DNA of 27,282 nt from a virus, in the IMG/VR virus record IMGVR_UViG_3300006341_000012, positions 1-27,282 of that record; one strand, given 5' to 3'. The notes below the pieces were generated by a model. That model was given only the letters and a program-made list of their open reading frames with translations. It was not told the DNA's origin and did not search any database. Positions 1,979 through 21,628 of this stretch are shown one piece after another. The translations under genes and the position numbers were made by a program. How positions within the stretch are numbered: position 1 is the stretch's first letter; every line of letters starts with the position of its first letter.

Positions 1979-2363
1979 AGAGTGATTATTCATTCTACGA
2001 AGAGGGCACTCACCACCACGCAACATTTTGTTTTCCGAAATACCTATACTCCTAAGAGCTGTTCCTATCTTGTAGGACGATAACATCAAATTACACCCTA
2101 GAGTATAATTTGTCAATAGTTATCGGGTGACAGGGCATTTTTCAATTCGAGCGATCCTGTTCTTACTTTAGTTTACTGCTATCAATTGCCGTACTTATTT
2201 TAAGTCGCTACCCTCCGAAGAGTTGGCACAGTTTCTTGTATAACGACTATCGAGTGATTTTGTTATTACTTTATAAGGTGCATCCATTCTCGAAAAGACA
2301 GTGGTCGCAATGCCAAACGTGTCCAGCCGTAAGTCGTAGTTTTATTTTGAATGAAACACCTTA
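1979..2363 (-). ncRNA. Candidate structured non-coding RNA or long leader
   Basis: It starts at a consensus promoter whose predicted first base (about 2363) coincides with the 5' arm of a closing helix. That helix is ATAAGGTG/CACCTTAT (2357-2364 with 2273-2280), continued after an internal loop by CATTC/GAATG (2349-2353 with 2285-2289). Further 3' are a UUCG-capped hairpin (2213-2222), an ACTTA/TAAGT hairpin (2193-2205), an AGTCG/CGACT pairing that crosses TGCC/GGCA, and a TCCTA/TAGGA hairpin just after the second promoter. No ORF with a ribosome binding site covers it. Size, promoter and helix density recall large phage RNAs such as GOLLD or ROOL, but no sequence match is claimed. The 3' end is not defined. 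Confidence 0.5.
2088..2116 (-). promoter_or_regulatory. Leftward promoter inside the non-coding region
   Basis: Minus-strand TTGACA (2111-2116), 17-nt spacer, TAATTT (2088-2093), preceded by TG at -1/-2 of an extended -10. Expected start is about 2081. The promoter is overlaid by a 9-bp hairpin (2088-2096 with 2103-2111). Confidence 0.65.
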
Positions 2364-2369
2364 TATTTA

Positions 2370-2398
2370 ATTGTAGCAACTAATTTTTAATGTGTCAA
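2370..2398 (-). promoter_or_regulatory. Near-consensus leftward promoter
   Basis: Minus-strand TTGACA (2393-2398), 17-nt spacer, TACAAT (2370-2375). The TGA inside TTGACA is the stop codon of the 2395-2544 gene. It drives leftward transcription into a region with no gene for nearly 500 nt. Confidence 0.85.
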
Positions 2399-2544
2399 CT
2401 ACCTTCAATCAAAGGCCAATCTTCTTCATCACCAATAAAACTGTCTCTATCATGTTCATCAACCATTTCCAACTCCTTTAAAATTTTCTCACTAATCTCT
2501 GAGTCTTTTACAACAAATTTCTTATCAAAACTTGAGGTTGCCAT
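2395..2544 (-). CDS. Small acidic hypothetical protein (49 aa)
   Basis: The start is placed at the ATG at 2544 because a strong AGGAGGG lies 4 nt upstream; an in-frame ATG further up (2634) has no comparable site. The product begins MATSSFDKKFVVKD and ends with an acidic tail (DEEDWPLIEGS). It is preceded by, and nearly touches, a 22-residue ORF ending at 2546. No family is recognised. Its stop codon is part of the -35 box of the next promoter. Confidence 0.6.
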   Translation of the reverse strand: MATSSFDKKFVVKDSEISEKILKELEMVDEHDRDSFIGDEEDWPLIEGS

Positions 2545-2545
2545 T

Positions 2546-2614
2546 TTACCCTCCTGAGAAACCCTTGTCAATAAAACCTTCTGAACCGAATGCAGGTGGT
2601 TTAACATCTTCCAT
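2546..2614 (-). CDS. Micro-ORF of 22 residues
   Basis: MEDVKPPAFGSEGFIDKGFS plus GG, with GAGG 8 nt before the ATG. It ends one base before the ATG of the 49-residue gene, whose ribosome binding site lies in its last codons, an arrangement typical of translational coupling. It is the first ORF after the promoter at 2646-2674. Function unknown; it could be a real microprotein or a coupling leader. Confidence 0.5.
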   Translation of the reverse strand: MEDVKPPAFGSEGFIDKGFSGG

Positions 2615-2645
2615 ACTAATTTCCTCTTTTTCAACGTTATAATTT

Positions 2646-2674
2646 ATTATCTCAAGTTTATTTGATTGTGTCAA
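2646..2674 (-). promoter_or_regulatory. Leftward sigma70-type promoter
   Basis: Minus-strand TTGACA (2669-2674), 17-nt spacer, GATAAT (2646-2651). It begins on the base after the stop codon of the exonuclease gene. Confidence 0.85.
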
Positions 2675-3550
2675 CTATTTCATCAAACTTTGAACATATT
2701 CTTTAACATCTTCACTACGCCACTCAAGATTGTTTAAGCACCAAGTTACATACCCAGAATCACTTTTTACTAATTCTCTCCAACTATTTCCTTTATGCTT
2801 ACCAAAACCCACTACATCCATTTGTTCTTCTTTCAAATGAGAATATGTAGAAAGTAGTTCCACTAAATACCCTAATTCCTCTTCATCATCAAGTTTTGCT
2901 TGGTTGACAGTGTATTGAACGTAATCGTAATCTTTTTTGATCACATCTTCCCATTTCTCATTCTTATACTTCTTTCCACCTTTACAAGTTTTCACATCAT
3001 AAAGCATTTCCCAAGCTTCATCAAGTGTTAAACCTTTATCTTTAAGCATATATTCAAGAACAAGACCATTAACCAACGTGTCGCTCTGTGCCGAATGAAG
3101 GTGTATACTGTGATCATTAAGACGTTCATCCTTATATAGTCCCCATTGGTAATACAACACTCCTAGTTTATGACTTTCCACTTCACCAACTTCATATAAT
3201 ACACGAGCAAGTTTTAGTGTACAAATTTGTCTCACATTTTCTGGAAAGTATTGTTCTGGTAAAACTTCTTTCTCATAAGATAAGTTGTGAGCAAAAACAT
3301 ATTGTTTTCCTTCCAAAGAATGATCCTTCAGAACTCTTTCTATCTTGGGAGCACTTTTAACATCTTCTTCAGTTACTCCGTGAATAGCCATTGCTTCAAA
3401 AGATATAGGTTCTTCTGGGTTAATCATTGAACCTCTTGAATCGATTACCTTAAAATCTCCATCTTTTGTGACACGGAAAATAGTTTCCCCGAACTCACAA
3501 ACTTTTCCTTTCATGCTTGTAGTTTCTGTATCAATGCTTGCTATCAACAT
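2675..3550 (-). CDS. DnaQ/ExoX-like 3'-5' exonuclease
   Basis: This 291-residue DEDD-superfamily exonuclease is expected to remove nucleotides from DNA 3' ends in replication, repair or host DNA breakdown. Visible motifs are Exo I SIDTETT (acidic residues D7 and E9), the ExoX-like AIHGVTEEDV (55-64), Exo II region FAHNLSYEKEV (86-96) and Exo III HSAQSDT with H152 and D157, the DEDDh pattern. The Exo II segment has Tyr-Glu where Phe-Asp is usual. A C-terminal segment VGFGKHKG...YVTWCLNNLEW (about 247-275) resembles the small DUF3820-type domain often joined to such phage exonucleases. AGGAGG sits 5 nt before the ATG. It is the last gene of a long leftward run. Confidence 0.85.
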   Translation of the reverse strand: MLIASIDTETTSMKGKVCEFGETIFRVTKDGDFKVIDSRGSMINPEEPISFEAMAIHGVTEEDVKSAPKIERVLKDHSLEGKQYVFAHNLSYEKEVLPEQYFPENVRQICTLKLARVLYEVGEVESHKLGVLYYQWGLYKDERLNDHSIHLHSAQSDTLVNGLVLEYMLKDKGLTLDEAWEMLYDVKTCKGGKKYKNEKWEDVIKKDYDYVQYTVNQAKLDDEEELGYLVELLSTYSHLKEEQMDVVGFGKHKGNSWRELVKSDSGYVTWCLNNLEWRSEDVKEYVQSLMK

Positions 3551-3569
3551 AATTCCTCCTAAAATAATC

Positions 3570-3800
3570 TTAACCTAAGAACACCAATTCTACCGCACCC
3601 AACACCATTGTCAACAATAATATTCCCCAGAAGAATGTTCCCTTTTCCCACCATTCTCTTGTGTCAACACAAACATAATCTTTTATGGGAGGTAATCCTT
3701 CTGCTCTGCGACACAATTCTTCATAAGGAATGTCGTCAAAGTTTTCACCTTTTAGGGTAAGTGGAGAGTCGTAATCTGTATGTTCATCTAGTTGACACAT
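3570..3800 (-). CDS. Small membrane-anchored hypothetical protein
   Basis: The 76-residue protein has a soluble acidic N-terminal part and one C-terminal transmembrane segment (GTFFWGILLLTMVLGAVELV, about 54-73), so most of it should face the cytoplasm. It starts on the base after the stop of the gene before it, with AAAAGG as ribosome binding site, so the two are translationally linked. No family recognised. Confidence 0.65.
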   Translation of the reverse strand: MCQLDEHTDYDSPLTLKGENFDDIPYEELCRRAEGLPPIKDYVCVDTREWWEKGTFFWGILLLTMVLGAVELVFLG

Positions 3801-4304
3801 TTACCTTTTCTCCACTACGTATTTACCTTGCTCTTGACACCAAGTTTTCTTAGTATCCGTAAAGTAATTAAAGTCTACTAAAAGTTTTCCTCTCTTAGCC
3901 CACTTCCTTACAAACTTATATACGTCACCCTTTCTTTGAAAGAATATAGGAAAACTTCCACCATCATTTATCCTGTAATCTTCGTTACCGATACACCAAC
4001 CTTTACCTTTTTTAGTGTCCTCTATATTATCTTCCAACCATTGAATCACCTCTGGTTTAAGATTATACGCAGACATATAATAAGTTTGTTTAAGTTTATC
4101 GATATCTTTAAGTTTATCTTCTGGGTAATCTTTCCTAAGCATTTCTTCAACATACTTCCAGTGATCATCTAGTTTATTCGTCTTCTCATAAACTAATATA
4201 TCATCTCCATCCTCTTCATCAATTGATAAGATATATTGACAATCATAATGTTCACCGTCCCAGTTAGATTTACCACACCAACAATGGTTCTTTAACAATC
4301 TCAT
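3801..4304 (-). CDS. Hypothetical protein (167 aa)
   Basis: The N-terminus carries a CxC...C pattern (HCWCGKSNWDGEHYDCQYI, about 7-25) that could bind zinc. The rest is charged and aromatic, with Trp-rich segments such as WCIGNEDYRIN near the middle. It overlaps the upstream gene by ATGA. No family recognised; the position among small leftward genes suggests an early accessory role. Confidence 0.65.
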   Translation of the reverse strand: MRLLKNHCWCGKSNWDGEHYDCQYILSIDEEDGDDILVYEKTNKLDDHWKYVEEMLRKDYPEDKLKDIDKLKQTYYMSAYNLKPEVIQWLEDNIEDTKKGKGWCIGNEDYRINDGGSFPIFFQRKGDVYKFVRKWAKRGKLLVDFNYFTDTKKTWCQEQGKYVVEKR

Positions 4305-12473: not shown

Positions 12474-13193
12474 TTAGTTTTCTTTTTCTAAGGAAGAGTC
12501 TAATATTTCTATAACTTCGTTTAATTTAGAATTAAGAAGTAACTCACTACTTCCATAATGTTCTTTTGGTCTGTAGTTTTTAAAAATACAAGAATCATTC
12601 ATACCTACCAACATTTGCTCTGTACTATACACAACAGAGTGTGTTCCTGAGTACAAACCTATTTGAGTAACCTTTGTATCTTCACCTAAAACCTTTTTTA
12701 TTCTGCTAGTGTTCTCTTTTAATCTCTTATCTGGATAAAATGTCCTTCCTACTTTGAAATAATCTGCACCTTCAATATCTAAAATATACATGTAATCTTT
12801 TTCACAAAGCTTATTAAGGTAAAGACCTCTTTTGTTTATATTACCACCACTATCAATATCATCTCTATAAAATACAAGATCGAACTCAGAATCTTCTGGC
12901 CTAAACACTAACTTATTTTTCTTTTGACCAACACCTTCTTCTAATTTTATAAAACCTATACCTTTTAATATTTCATCAGGCTTGTTTTTAGACTTACCTT
13001 TAAATAACTCTTTTGTTTTTCCTATTCCTGTGGCAATTTGATTCCAACTTTGGTGACATACTCCATTTTCTGAATTAATCCTCATGTACAGGTAAACTCT
13101 TAAAGCAGTATCGGTGAAGGTGTAAACTTCATTTGTTGTTTTATTTTCTATCTTAGCTACAGATATTAAAGTATTTACATCATCTTCTAACAT
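12474..13193 (-). CDS. Winged-helix / GIY-YIG (T5orf172-type) fusion protein
   Basis: The 239-residue protein has two parts. Residues 25-100 look like a winged helix of the replication-initiator or DnaD type (FTDTALRVYLYMRI, then CHQSWNQIATGIGKTKE as recognition region). Residues 134-220 match the T5orf172/Mug113 branch of the GIY-YIG nuclease superfamily: YMYILD, FKVGRT, R158, E192 within STEQMLVG, and ending in an SSELLLN helix. The catalytic pattern seems intact. Its ATG overlaps the TAA of the polymerase-like gene (TAATG), with AAGGAG inside that gene, so the two proteins are made together. A role in replication initiation, DNA nicking or target DNA cutting is inferred. Confidence 0.7.
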   Translation of the reverse strand: MLEDDVNTLISVAKIENKTTNEVYTFTDTALRVYLYMRINSENGVCHQSWNQIATGIGKTKELFKGKSKNKPDEILKGIGFIKLEEGVGQKKNKLVFRPEDSEFDLVFYRDDIDSGGNINKRGLYLNKLCEKDYMYILDIEGADYFKVGRTFYPDKRLKENTSRIKKVLGEDTKVTQIGLYSGTHSVVYSTEQMLVGMNDSCIFKNYRPKEHYGSSELLLNSKLNEVIEILDSSLEKEN

Positions 13194-14485
13194 TAACTCT
13201 CCTTTTCTATTTTACAATTATCGTTAAATCCTAACACATGTTCATAAGCTTTAAACATTGTAGATTTTAATTCTTCTTCATATTCCTCAATAACAGAAAA
13301 ATCATCATGCGTTTGTATTACAAGTTGATTATGGTTTTGCATCATGTAATCTAATACATAATCATTAACTGCAGATCCTACATTTTGAACCTGTAACCCT
13401 TTTGCACTAAAAAACAAGTTATTTATAATATAATGATTTTCTGTAACAACCTCGATAACCCAACTAACAGGTATTGTTTTATCAGGTATTTTACCTTTCT
13501 CGTATAATTCATTTATCTTTAAGTTATCAGATAAAGCTTTGTTTATAGCTAACTTAGCATCATTTTCACTATCTACATTCAAGCATATTATGATAGCAAG
13601 TTTGGCAATCTTCCTAGCTATGTCTGGATCATATCTCTCATTTATCAATTCTGGTATACGATAAGGATCATCCATTTCCATTATTTCTTGGTTCATGCTA
13701 TATGCTAGGCTTACCTCAAAACCTTTATAATCATAACAAACCACTTTCTTACCCTCAATTTCAACACTTGTTCTATCTTTTGAAGATAATCGTTGATATT
13801 CACAATTCATGTGTGACCTTCCTCCGTGATTGAAGTCTGTGTTGAATATCTTATAAATCTGAGTGTCTAGTTTATCACCTTTAAACCTTACGTCTTTTGT
13901 TCTTGAAAAACTGTTATATCTCTCTAAGAAGTCTAATATACCTTCTTGTTGGTGTGTCATGGAAAACTCCTCTGAATACTTACTCTTACTGTCTCTTAAA
14001 ATCAATACATCTTCTAGTTTATCAAATACCTGTTTTGGTTTTACATATCTAGTATACAAGTCTTTTAACCTTTTTTCAGGCTTGAAGTAACTGTTACTAA
14101 AACTAACAGGTGTCCACTTTCCCTTTATCATTTGGTAGTCTTCTATCTCTCCTCCAGTGGTTAATTCTCCATAAGAGTTTTGATGTAAGAAGTTGTAAAG
14201 AGACTTAGTGTATTGGTAACTAACTTTTCTTTTTGTGTTTTTACCATTCACAACTCTTGATTTACTGTAAGAGTTTTTAGATAAAGTTACTCCAAAAGCT
14301 TTTTTATTTGATAACATGTTTTTATTAAAGTTAAGAACAAAGCAACCAACAGCTCCTTTTGCAATGTTTATTTTATTATTAGTAATCTTATTGTAATTAA
14401 TAGATAACCAATCAAGATATTCTTTAAGGATCATGTCCCTAAATTTAGTTAAATATCTTGGAATTTTGTGGTCAATAATGTACAT
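13193..14485 (-). CDS. Divergent single-subunit polymerase-palm-like protein
   Basis: The 430-residue protein contains what look like the palm motifs of the family-A DNA polymerase / T7-like RNA polymerase fold. These are GGRSHMNCEYQRLSSKDR (221-238), VVCYDYKGFEVSLAYS (248-263, motif A with D252), ARKIAKLAIIICLNV (290-304, motif B-like Arg/Lys helix), and VIQTHDDFSV (389-398, motif C with HDD). Similar arrangements occur in poorly studied proteins of bacterial mobile elements. No 3'-5' exonuclease or primase motifs are seen. It begins a leftward unit with the winged-helix/GIY-YIG gene. The start at 14485 is uncertain, because the nearest GGAG precedes another, out-of-frame ATG. Polymerase activity is inferred. 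Confidence 0.6.
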   Translation of the reverse strand: MYIIDHKIPRYLTKFRDMILKEYLDWLSINYNKITNNKINIAKGAVGCFVLNFNKNMLSNKKAFGVTLSKNSYSKSRVVNGKNTKRKVSYQYTKSLYNFLHQNSYGELTTGGEIEDYQMIKGKWTPVSFSNSYFKPEKRLKDLYTRYVKPKQVFDKLEDVLILRDSKSKYSEEFSMTHQQEGILDFLERYNSFSRTKDVRFKGDKLDTQIYKIFNTDFNHGGRSHMNCEYQRLSSKDRTSVEIEGKKVVCYDYKGFEVSLAYSMNQEIMEMDDPYRIPELINERYDPDIARKIAKLAIIICLNVDSENDAKLAINKALSDNLKINELYEKGKIPDKTIPVSWVIEVVTENHYIINNLFFSAKGLQVQNVGSAVNDYVLDYMMQNHNQLVIQTHDDFSVIEEYEEELKSTMFKAYEHVLGFNDNCKIEKES

Positions 14486-18557: not shown

Positions 18558-18609
18558 GCTGCAGGAAACACCTCACTTGCAGCTTACCCACTCTTAATTA
18601 ATGAGGTGT
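18558..18609 (+). promoter_or_regulatory. Alternative RNA stems covering the endonuclease start
   Basis: GCTGCA/TGCAGC (18558-18563 with 18578-18583) competes with ACACCTCA/TGAGGTGT (18568-18575 with 18602-18609). The second stem would bury the ATG at 18601. A translational block of this kind is known for T4 homing-endonuclease genes. Confidence 0.45.
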
Positions 18610-19875
18610 GTAAAGTTTGAGGTGTTATTTTTGAGACGTAATATATACAGTTACGATTATTTGAAAAAGTTTGAAGTTAACCAAGATAGTTCTAGGAGAA
18701 AATTTAAAACAGGACACAGAAGTGGAACAGTGTTTCTTATGTTTCCAGTTGACATACCAGAATCTAAGACGGCTAACTTATGGGCAGCTAAGTGTATCTG
18801 TGGCAACTATTTTACTTGTAATGCATCTGCCGTTATGAGAGGTGGTACTAAGAGCTGCGGTTGCTTATCTACTCGAAGGAACTCTCTTAAGTACAAATTA
18901 GAGGCCATAAAAGGGGCTAGAATAAATAACTACGAGATAAGAAGTTTACCTACGGAGTATAAAAGCAGAGATATAAAGCTTACATGTAAGGTATGTAATA
19001 CTTCTACAGAAAAAGGTAATCTTACAGAGCACCTGATGGAAGGAAGAAAATTCTGCAAGTGTTCTCATGTCTATAAAAGAACTTTTGAGGAAGTTAAAGA
19101 AGATTGTCATAAATATCTCAGAGAAAATCCCTTATCCCCTTGGAGAATAGAAAGTTTCCCCGAAGAATTTACATATGTCCGTGATTATAGGATAAACCTT
19201 GAATGTAAATTATGCGGTCATAAAGTGGATATGTTGTTTGGAAACTTTGTAAGAGATAAGGGTTGTCAAGGATGTTTTGATATTAGAATGTCAGAACTTA
19301 AATCTAAAGACTTATCTTACTTTTTAGAAAAGAGTTTTGAAAAACACGGTGACAGGTATGATTATAGTAAGGCAGTTTACACAAAATGTAGAGAGCCTTT
19401 AGAAATTGTCTGCAGAGAGCATGGAAGTTTTTGGCAATCACCTGACAATCATTACAACAAAGGAAAAGGTTGCAAGAAATGTAACGGTAATAGGTATGTA
19501 AACTTTAAAAGGGTTTCTATAGACGATAATAAAGACCTGCTTAAGAGTAAACCTTCAGGAGTGTATATTCTCAAATCATCTGTAAACACTGAAATGTATA
19601 AAATAGGTATAAGTGTTAAACCAGAAGCTAGGTGTAGAGATGTTAGTAATGAAAGTGGATTAGGTTTTAGTGTCATAAAGTATGAAGAGTTTAATATGTA
19701 CGATGCTTATGTATTAGAAAATTTACTACATAACAGATTTGATGAATTTAACTGCAGGGAAAGCTTTCAAAACAAATTTGCTGGATACACAGAATGCTTT
19801 TTACTGAAAGAAGAACATTTAAATAAAATTGATGAAATAATAACTGATTTTAAAAGAGGTGAAATTAATGAGTAA
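18601..19875 (+). CDS. GIY-YIG (T5orf172-type) homing-endonuclease-like protein with zinc fingers
   Basis: The protein is 424 residues long if started at ATG 18601. Four zinc-ribbon-like modules come first: CIC...CGC (65-88), CKVC...CKC (129-154), CKLC...CQGC (202-225), and CREHGSFWQSP...CKKC (271-294). The last, preceded by KHGDRYDYSKAVY, is a repeat known from phage homing endonucleases. A C-terminal GIY-YIG domain of T5orf172/Mug113 type follows: VYILKS (321-326), YKIGIS (333-338), R344/R346, E373. It probably recognises DNA with the fingers and cuts with the GIY-YIG domain. TTG at 18631 with GAGGTG 6 nt upstream is an alternative start. Its end overlaps the terminase start (ATGAGTAA), so it is inserted between the terminase genes and carries the terminase ribosome binding site. 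Confidence 0.8.
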   Translation: MRCVKFEVLFLRRNIYSYDYLKKFEVNQDSSRRKFKTGHRSGTVFLMFPVDIPESKTANLWAAKCICGNYFTCNASAVMRGGTKSCGCLSTRRNSLKYKLEAIKGARINNYEIRSLPTEYKSRDIKLTCKVCNTSTEKGNLTEHLMEGRKFCKCSHVYKRTFEEVKEDCHKYLRENPLSPWRIESFPEEFTYVRDYRINLECKLCGHKVDMLFGNFVRDKGCQGCFDIRMSELKSKDLSYFLEKSFEKHGDRYDYSKAVYTKCREPLEIVCREHGSFWQSPDNHYNKGKGCKKCNGNRYVNFKRVSIDDNKDLLKSKPSGVYILKSSVNTEMYKIGISVKPEARCRDVSNESGLGFSVIKYEEFNMYDAYVLENLLHNRFDEFNCRESFQNKFAGYTECFLLKEEHLNKIDEIITDFKRGEINE

Positions 19876-21628
19876 CAAGAAAGAACCTTTTTTCAAACCA
19901 GCTAGTAAAAAACAAGCTCTTATGTTGAAAAGAGCTTCTGATACACAAATACTTGTTATCGGTGGGGCTTAAAAATCCAGTGGTCACACCTTAAAAAACC
20001 TTGCTAATTCGGGGAAGGCTAAGTCTTAGAGATAAGTTAATCCCGAGCCGAACGATTAAATTCGTGGGTGTAGAGACTAAAGTAAGTCCAAGTGGATTGA
20101 AAACGTAAGGGCACTAAAAGTGTAAGAGATAGTCCGACAACAAGGGAAACCTTGGAAGAGATTAACGACCTCAAAACTGTACCCAGATTTTAAGGCTGGT
20201 TCTGGGAAAAGCACGATTTTAAACCACCTGCCACTAATGCTCATAGATGATCCTAAAACCAATTGTATACTTTACCGTAGAACAAACCCACAATTAATGG
20301 GTGGTTTATGGCCTAATGCAAGAAGTATTTATGAGAATCTTCCAAAAAACATGACACCTAGAGCAATCAGAGATCATAAAATGGAAGTGGTGTTTAAGAA
20401 TGGTGCGAAGATTAAGTATCAACAAGCGGAAAATGTCTCTAAGTCTAAAAATGACGCGCAGGGACAGGAGTTCACTTTTATTGGGATAGACGAAGGAACG
20501 CAATTTGAATGGGAGCAAATAGAGTACTTCATGTCTCGTTTAAGATCCCCCTCTAAACACTTTTCACGTATGGTAATCTCTTGTAACCCATCTCCCGATC
20601 ACACCCTTAGGTCAATGATCGATTGGTACTTGGACGAATCGGGGTACGCTATACCAGAAAGAGACGGAGTAGTTAGATACTTTGTTCAAGAAGCTGGAGA
20701 GTATATATGGGGAGACTCTAAAAAAGAATTAGGGGAAAAGCTTGATATACCAAAGAATAGGTGGGAAGATAAAATACTTTCATTTTCATTTGTTTCTGGT
20801 ACTATCTACGATAACCCTGTTATGATGGAAATTAACCCCAGTTACCTTGCATTTTTAGAAGGTCTTAACGATGTAGATAAAGCTCAACTACTTTATGGGT
20901 GTTGGGATGCAAGAGCAAAGGGAGCTAATTATTGGCAACGAGAGTGGATAAAGGAGAAATTTAAGTCTGAGATAGACCCGTCCACTATGCAAATAGTTAG
21001 ATCTTATGACTTAGCAGCTACTGAACGAAGTCAGGTAAACAAGTATCCAGATCCAACTGCATGTTGTAAAGTCTATAAAGATAGGCAAGGATATTACTAT
21101 ATTGCTGGCGATTATCATGAAGATTTTTATGACGACTATTACGATATATATGGACAGTTCTGTAAAAGATCAGGGGATAGGGATAACCACATAATAAAAC
21201 AAGCGCATCATGACGGTACAGATTGTACTATACTTCTGCCAGTAGATGTGGGGGCATCTGGAAAGACAGCTTATGAAGCTATGGCTAGTAATTTTATGCA
21301 AGAAGGTTTTATGGTGAAACCTGATCCAACTCCTAACAATAAAACGAAGCTTGTAAAATTTCAACCATTTGCTACAGCATGTTTTAATGGATTGGTTTAT
21401 TTCTTAGTGGATACATTTGATAAAAAGACTCTAGAATTCATATATAAACAACTAGAGGCTTTTGATGGAGAGAGGTCTACAACAACACGTCATGATGAAT
21501 TTCCTGATCTGTTAGCTAGCGCTTATAATTATTTACAGAAGTCCAAAGTACACAAAGCATTTTCAATGCCAAGAGTTGCAAGCAGAAACACCCCTTACGC
21601 ACAATTCAAATCCTCTACAGGATCTTAG
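19868..21628 (+). CDS. Terminase large subunit, split by a group I intron (join 19868-19969, 20195-21628)
   Basis: Splicing gives a 511-residue ATPase/nuclease motor that packages DNA into the prohead through the portal. Exon 1 encodes 34 residues ending ILVIGGA; exon 2 begins AGSGKST, so Walker A (GGAAGSGKST, 32-41, K39) is complete only after splicing. The unspliced reading frame stops at once (TAA 19970-19972). Walker B is FIGIDEG (D133, E134). The RNaseH-like nuclease begins at VRSYDLAAT (D306), with VDVGASGKT and a final acidic motif DEFPDLLAS. Length is typical. Ribosome binding site GAGGTG lies 7 nt before the ATG, inside the endonuclease gene. Next downstream is the portal. Confidence 0.92.
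19970..20194 (+). ncRNA. Group I self-splicing intron, 225 nt, no ORF
   Basis: P1: the exon end GGUGGGGCU pairs with GGUCACACC (19982-19990), 8 of 9 positions, with the U-G wobble at the splice site. P10: CCAGU (19977-19981) pairs with the 3' exon start GCUGG (20195-20199). The intron ends in G (20194). The core shows AGAGACUAAA and AGAUAGUCC, giving P7 (GACUA/UAGUC), P8 GCACU-AAA-AGUGU (20111-20123), P9 CAAGG-GAAA-CCUUG (20141-20154), and UUCGGG/CCCGA-type pairs for P4. Boundaries are confirmed by restoring the terminase P-loop in frame. It has no coding capacity, so its mobility would need an enzyme supplied elsewhere. Confidence 0.93.

What the first reader, a model, noticed from the sequence alone, without database searches (positions are those of the whole stretch)
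19970..20194. ORF-less group I intron exactly inside the Walker A motif of the large terminase
The insertion splits GGA|AGSGKST, the most conserved site of the gene. P1 (with U-G at the splice site), P7, P8, P9 and P10 can all be drawn by eye, and removing 225 nt restores the frame. Without splicing only a 34-residue stub is made, so DNA packaging depends wholly on the intron. Placement in codons that cannot vary is the known strategy of mobile introns; the P-loop of a terminase is a striking case.
Basis: partly seen in the sequence, partly recalled or inferred. Interest (0 to 1): 0.8.

Follow-up and report, generated by a model that had tools for sequence, protein, structure and literature searches.

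The report
Group I intron inside terminase P-loop
A marine phage's DNA-packaging motor gene is split inside its ATP-binding loop by a small RNA that almost certainly cuts itself out of the messenger; the same intron is already known, and shown to splice, in the cholera phage ICP1, so this is a solid new example of a known kind rather than a new thing.

Summary
A 225-nt, ORF-less insert (19970-20194) splits terL between Ala34 and Ala35 of the Walker A loop (GGA|AGSGKST). It matches the Rfam group I model at 52-55 bits (cut-off 50). All core helices, including P1 with U-G and P10, are supported by compensatory changes in 12 related introns. Intronless relatives read GGAAGSGK with no extra residues.

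The intron is not unique. Clear relatives sit at the same codon in Pseudoalteromonas phage PH357, several Vibrio phages, an Aeromonas phage and IMG/VR contigs, across TerL types as little as 28-33% identical. Phage ICP1's copy was shown to splice by RNA-seq and RT-PCR (Barth 2023, PMC10448857). Intron and TerL trees conflict, so the intron or its surroundings have moved between phages.

In relatives this slot holds at least five different nuclease types. Some intronless relatives also carry one, so the nuclease-intron link is plausible but unproven.

New member of a known kind.

The parts
19868..19969 (+). terL exon 1, 34 codons ending ...VIGGA; start overlaps the HEG stop (ATGAGTAA)
   Evidence: translation and tblastn to relatives; dN/dS well below 1 against relatives
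19970..20194 (+). ORF-less group I intron, 225 nt, between Ala34 and Ala35 of the Walker A loop; exon ends U, intron ends G
   Evidence: RF00028 52.4 bits, 55.4 bits; covariation; intronless relatives
20195..21628 (+). terL exon 2 (AGSGKST... to stop), large terminase subunit
   Evidence: Pfam Terminase_6N/3/6C; phrog_979 E 1.3e-173
18601..19875 (+). free-standing homing-endonuclease-like gene: cysteine-rich (zinc-ribbon-like) N-terminal part plus C-terminal GIY-YIG (T5orf172/MUG113); start codon assumed ATG 18601
   Evidence: Pfam PF10544 7.7e-10, PF13455 4.8e-08; phrog_681 endonuclease 1.2e-40
19855..19859 (+). AGAGG, Shine-Dalgarno-like, 8 nt before terL ATG
   Evidence: read by eye
19961..19990 (+). 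P1: 19961-19969 (exon) with 19982-19990 (internal guide), U-G at the splice site
   Evidence: U-G in 12/12; outer pairs covary
19977..19981 (+). P10 5' strand CCAGU, pairs with exon 2 20195-20199 GCUGG
   Evidence: A-U to U-A with exon 2 in two relatives
19999..20110 (+). P3: 19999-20004 with 20105-20110
   Evidence: 100% paired, 3 pairs with changes on both sides
20008..20047 (+). P4: 20008-20013 with 20042-20047; P5: 20017-20020 with 20035-20038; P5a: 20023-20025 with 20031-20033
20048..20067 (+). P6: 20048-20049 with 20066-20067; P6a: 20052-20055 with 20062-20065
   Evidence: C-G to U-A in 6 of 12
20075..20134 (+). P7: 20075-20079 (GACUA) with 20130-20134 (UAGUC), guanosine-site helix
   Evidence: 100% paired, 2 pairs with changes on both sides
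20085..20098 (+). P7.2-type hairpin 20085-20089 with 20094-20098 between P7 and P3'; the P7.1 hairpin seen in most relatives is missing here and in PH357
20111..20123 (+). P8: 20111-20115 with 20119-20123
20141..20172 (+). P9: 20141-20145 with 20150-20154 (GAAA loop); P9.1: 20158-20160 with 20170-20172

Best explanation
A self-splicing, ORF-less group I intron interrupts the P-loop codons of the phage's large-terminase gene. Exogenous guanosine is bound at P7 and attacks the U-G splice site in P1; exon 1 then attacks after the terminal G (20194), guided by P10, restoring GGAAGSGKST. Shown here: the fold, exact boundaries, covariation, site conservation, and tree conflict implying transfer between phages. 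Inferred: splicing of this copy (shown in vivo for the ICP1 homologue). More weakly inferred (about 0.5): the adjacent T5orf172/GIY-YIG gene drives spread by cutting intronless terL alleles at the Walker A site, the intron protecting its own copy (collaborative homing). The confidence below is for the spliced-intron part only.
For: RF00028 above cut-off. Covariation beyond shuffles and slides, including P1 and P10 covarying with the exons. Intronless relatives define the same junction. Exon 1 is under purifying selection (dN 0.03-0.16 vs dS 0.5-1.5). In-vivo splicing of ICP1 terL by RNA-seq and RT-PCR, with adjacent T5orf172 HEG; ICP1's intron matches the window's 5' half at 80% and groups with it in the intron tree. 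Tree conflict: the intron tree joins window with PH357 (98/100), while exon 2 joins PH357 with L004 (97% identical) and is nearest L002 for the window (90%); AU tests p 9e-5 and 8e-82.
Against: No RNA data for this phage. The intron is the shortest of the 18 compared and lacks the P7.1 hairpin of most relatives. Minimum-energy folding alone is only modestly unusual (z -1.6). On the homing part: intronless relatives RYC, eugene and L005 also carry an endonuclease-like gene in the slot; eugene's is 69% identical to that of intron-bearing 424E50-1. The window shares its HEG with L002 (63%) but its closest intron with PH357, whose HEG is only 27% identical.
Confidence: 0.95

Rival explanations
1. 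The intron splices but has no functional tie to the neighbouring nuclease: the region upstream of terL is simply a hot spot for free-standing endonuclease genes that target their own insertion neighbourhood, and the intron spreads passively by recombination.
For: Endonuclease genes in the slot next to intronless terL in RYC, eugene and L005; window intron and window HEG have different closest relatives; Barth 2023 offers HEG turnover as an alternative.
Against: At least five nuclease types (T5orf172, classic GIY-YIG, NUMOD4-HNH, phrog_99 HNH, endonuclease VII-like) lie directly upstream of terL copies with related ORF-less introns; 93-95% identical HEGs in VnaP, R16F and qdvp001 sit beside two clearly different introns 3 nt apart, as expected if the Walker A site is the common target.
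Confidence: 0.4
2. The intron is an expression switch: GTP or cell state controls splicing so that the packaging ATPase appears late.
For: Proposed as a general hypothesis for phage terL and polymerase introns (PMC11878797).
Against: No regulatory element found or tested here; close relatives thrive without the intron.
Confidence: 0.05
3. The insert is a decayed, non-splicing remnant and the terminase gene is broken or expressed as two pieces.
For: Shortened intron without P7.1.
Against: All core helices intact and covarying; purifying selection on exon 1; ICP1 homologue splices; a P-loop split between two peptides would not be expected to work.
Confidence: 0.03
4. Intein, translational bypass or assembly artefact rather than an intron.
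For: Inteins are common in TerL P-loops (PMC5050341).
Against: The insert has stops in every frame and no ORF; homologous inserts in many independent records; group I model match.
Confidence: 0.01

Closest known systems
Vibrio phage ICP1 terL intron (gp129-gp128) with adjacent T5orf172 gene tcgB (Barth, Dunham, Seed 2023, PMC10448857)
   Same: Same codon position, related ORF-less intron, HEG of the same broad family overlapping the terL start; spliced in vivo.
   Different: TerL only about 33% identical, HEG 25% identical; window intron is 225 vs 262 nt and lacks the P7.1 hairpin; no RNA evidence for the window.
Pseudoalteromonas phage PH357 terL intron (KX822733)
   Same: Closest intron (83-87% identical), same site, same lack of P7.1.
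   Different: TerL exon 2 only 60% identical and of another lineage; HEG 27% identical; the record annotates neither the intron nor exon 1.
Cyanophage S-PM2 psbA intron with free-standing F-CphI, and T3/T7-like cases (collaborative homing)
   Same: Intron-bearing gene next to a free-standing endonuclease gene.
   Different: Cleavage of the intron insertion site is shown there (PMC6083498) and not here; the nuclease family differs, although the P018-4 relative has an endonuclease VII-like neighbour as F-CphI is.
Group I introns in terL of Bastillevirinae, Shewanella phages KASIA and 1/4
   Same: Group I introns in large-terminase genes.
   Different: Other TerL families or other sites; those in KASIA and Shewanella 1/4 enclose HNH genes.
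TerL P-loop inteins of mycobacteriophages (TerL1-a, -b; PMC5050341)
   Same: Mobile self-splicing element in the TerL Walker A loop.
   Different: Protein splicing, not RNA; other phages; TerL1-a lies between Lys and Thr, not between the two alanines.

Membership tests
Group I intron (Rfam RF00028) | Covariance-model score above the curated cut-off | tested here: met
   52.4 bits, 55.4 bits, cut-off 50
Group I intron (Rfam RF00028) | Core helices P3-P8 with P3/P7 pseudoknot, supported by covariation | tested here: met
Group I intron (Rfam RF00028) | P1 with U-G at the 5' splice site and terminal G at the 3' end | tested here: met
   U19969 with G19982, G20194
Group I intron (Rfam RF00028) | Intronless homologues show a precise empty site | tested here: met
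Group I intron (Rfam RF00028) | Guanosine-dependent self-splicing | not testable with these tools
   in-vivo splicing shown for the ICP1 homologue only
Collaborative homing pair | ORF-less intron next to a free-standing homing-endonuclease gene | tested here: met
   T5orf172/MUG113 gene 18601-19875 overlaps terL start
Collaborative homing pair | Endonuclease cleaves the empty intron site but not the intron-bearing allele | not testable with these tools
   needs purified protein
Collaborative homing pair | Intron and endonuclease gene inherited together | tested here: inconclusive
   window intron closest to PH357, window HEG closest to L002; intronless genomes with HEG exist
Mobile group I intron with its own HEG | HEG inside the intron | tested here: not met
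   no ORF in the 225 nt
Intein | In-frame protein insert | tested here: not met
   stops in all three frames

The most novel reading that the evidence does not exclude
The TerL Walker A codon is a long-lived homing address: one ORF-less intron lineage keeps the site across deeply divergent terminases while unrelated free-standing nucleases (T5orf172, GIY-YIG, NUMOD4-HNH, HNH, endonuclease VII-like) are serially recruited next to it, the intron shielding the target of each, so that intron and nuclease are exchangeable partners rather than one element.
Probability: 0.35. Interest if true: 0.6.

Novelty: new member of a known kind. Interest (0 to 1): 0.4.

Why it matters
It adds a new member to an intron family that interrupts the most conserved stretch of an essential phage motor. 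The relatives gathered here (related introns with different nucleases, similar nucleases with and without the intron, and nearly identical nucleases with two introns 3 nt apart) offer natural pairs on which the collaborative-homing hypothesis proposed for ICP1 can be tested. It also warns that terL annotations starting at or after the P-loop in these phages are missing exon 1, and that Rfam scans of long sequences can lose such short introns.

Tried and rejected
Whole-window Rfam scan gave only a weak Plastid-ycf3 match, below its cut-off and on the other strand, treated as chance; the local scan found the intron. Minimum-energy folding of the single sequence does not draw the group I core and is weakly informative. 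Rfam at gathering threshold over 20 loci reports some Walker A introns but not those of ICP1, PH357, L002, L003, L004 or 1.161, so absence there is not evidence against. A search for relatives of the HEG by protein in IMG/VR gave only the L002 and L005 contigs. One of 12 pattern matches (L034) is a chance match outside terL. Papers on introns in a terminase P-loop: none found beyond intein papers and the ICP1 work. Inteins, bypass and artefact were considered and rejected. The P8 and P5 columns of the alignment are partly out of register because of length differences, so their pair counts are underestimates.

Full report
OBSERVATION. The window is a 27,282-base virus record. The large-terminase gene starts at 19868 with an ATG that overlaps the stop of the preceding gene (ATGAGTAA). 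Its first 34 codons end in ...VIGGA at 19969. The next codon is TAA. After 225 nt the frame resumes at 20195 with AGSGKST and runs to 21628. The insert has stops in all three frames. Joined, the exons give an intact 511-residue terminase whose Walker A loop is G33-A-A-G-S-G-K39-S; the insert lies between A34 and A35.

GROUP I IDENTITY. The local stretch matches RF00028 at 52.4 bits, E 1.1e-12, and the record search gives 55.4 bits, E 2.5e-15; the curated cut-off is 50. A scan of the whole window had missed it; since the local scan finds it, I attribute the miss to the search filters. All canonical helices can be drawn: P1 with U-G, P3, P4, P5, P6, P7, a P7.2-type hairpin, P8, P9, P9.1 and P10. 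On an alignment of 12 related introns with short exon flanks, 91.3% of cells form standard pairs, 33 of 61 pairs show changes on both sides, and no shuffle of 500 reaches the observed covariation score; sliding the partners drops pairing to 33-41%. P1 and P10 covary with the exon letters themselves (for example P10 CCAGU/GCUGG to CCUGU/GCAGG). Hairpins between P7 and P3' suggest an IA-type intron; this subgroup label is from general knowledge and was not tested. The window and PH357 introns lack the P7.1 hairpin that most relatives have, and the window's is the shortest of 18 introns compared (225 vs 238-262 nt).

BOUNDARIES AND SITE. Terminases of Vibrio phage RYC, Shewanella phage 1/4, Vibrio phage eugene 12A10, Vibrio phage PS17B-2, Escherichia phage UPEC06 and contig L005 are uninterrupted here and read GGAAGSGK. 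Across 25 loci, GGAAGSGK is the most conserved 8-residue stretch of TerL. Exon 1 shows strong purifying selection between relatives, as expected if it is part of the working protein.

RELATIVES. Introns of the same family at the same codon were found in Pseudoalteromonas phage PH357, Vibrio phages ICP1, 1.161, F100, 424E50-1, P018-4, 10AMN, qdvp001, 1.187 and 1.193, Aeromonas phage PhAER-4, and several IMG/VR contigs. The F100 and 424E50-1 copies were read across the ends of their records, which are opened at terL. The 3' end of the qdvp001/1.187/1.193 copies is less certain: the in-frame junction would leave the intron ending in A rather than G. Of 12 IMG/VR stretches matching the 5' junction pattern, 11 lie at the TerL Walker A codon and one is a chance match; some of the 11 are the same or near-identical contigs. 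The host terminases include types only 28-33% identical to the window's. In VnaP, R16F and 11895-B1 a clearly different group I intron sits 3 nt further on (GGAA|GSGK).

MOVEMENT. The intron tree joins window and PH357 (98/100), whereas the exon 2 tree joins PH357 with contig L004 (97% identical over the part compared) and places the window nearest L002 (90%). Holding window, L002 and L003 together on the intron data is rejected (p-AU 9e-5), and holding window with PH357 on the exon 2 data is rejected (p 8e-82). The groups were chosen after seeing identities, so the p-values are indicative. In PH357, exon 1 near the junction resembles the window more than L004, and exon 2 resembles L004 more, so the exchanged tract seems to end near the 3' splice site. 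Whether this came from endonuclease-driven homing or ordinary recombination is not resolved.

THE NEIGHBOURING NUCLEASE. The gene at 18601-19875 carries a C-terminal T5orf172/MUG113 GIY-YIG domain and matches phrog_681 endonuclease. Its closest found relative is upstream of terL in L002 (63%). In other intron-bearing relatives the same slot holds T5orf172, classic GIY-YIG with HTH, NUMOD4-HNH, phrog_99 HNH or endonuclease VII-like genes. VnaP, R16F and qdvp001 have 93-95% identical HEGs but two different introns 3 nt apart, which fits a shared target protected by either intron. Against a strict link: intronless RYC, eugene and L005 also carry an endonuclease-like gene in the slot; eugene and 424E50-1 share 91% identical TerL (exon 2) and 69% identical HEGs yet only the latter has the intron; the L005 HEG has a C-terminal frameshift (decay or sequencing error not distinguished); and L004, L035/L038 and PhAER-4 have the intron with no such gene directly abutting.

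WHAT IS KNOWN. Barth, Dunham and Seed (2023, PMC10448857) showed by RNA-seq and RT-PCR that ICP1 terL is spliced from two exons, with the T5orf172 gene next to exon 1, and discussed collaborative homing and HEG turnover. Collaborative homing itself was described for the psbA intron and F-CphI (PMC6083498). Group I introns in other terL genes are known (PMC11878797; PMC8541194). Inteins in the TerL P-loop are common in mycobacteriophages (PMC5050341). The finding is therefore a new member of a known kind; splicing of this copy is inferred, at high confidence.

VERDICT. Observation confirmed, interpretation supported with the nuclease partner added. Interest 0.4: ordinary as a group I intron, but the collection of relatives gives good natural pairs for testing how ORF-less introns spread.

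Noticed in passing
window 12474-13193 (-), next to 13193-14485 (-): A second gene with a phrog_681 endonuclease-like C-terminal part (E 8e-12), overlapping by one base the end of a phrog_4756 protein of unknown function; possibly another free-standing homing endonuclease.
   Followed up: partly
L008 (Vibrio phage R16F) 2209-4237; L007 (VnaP) 2144-4002: R16F terL carries four separate group I introns and VnaP terL three, annotated as separate terminase pieces.
   Followed up: partly
L007, L008, L020 terL: A clearly different group I intron inserted 3 nt downstream (GGAA|GSGK), in VnaP and R16F beside HEGs 93-95% identical to that of qdvp001, which has the other intron.
   Followed up: partly
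L005 1-1712: Relative (41%) of the window's HEG upstream of an intronless terL, with a C-terminal frameshift; decay or sequencing error.
   Followed up: partly
L027 1791-2031 (R16F, between RNR alpha pieces); L018 2957-3170 (PWH3a-P1, upstream of RNR beta): Group I introns in or near ribonucleotide reductase genes that share sequence with the window's intron, hinting at exchange between sites.
   Followed up: no
L010, L012, L023 intron 3' ends: The in-frame junction leaves the intron ending in A (...CTTACAA|GCTGGT) instead of the usual G; the true 3' splice site there is unclear.
   Followed up: no
window 19900-20260: Rfam scan of the full window at E<=1 lost this intron although the local scan gives 52 bits; ICP1's proven terL intron is also missed at gathering threshold.
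   Followed up: yes
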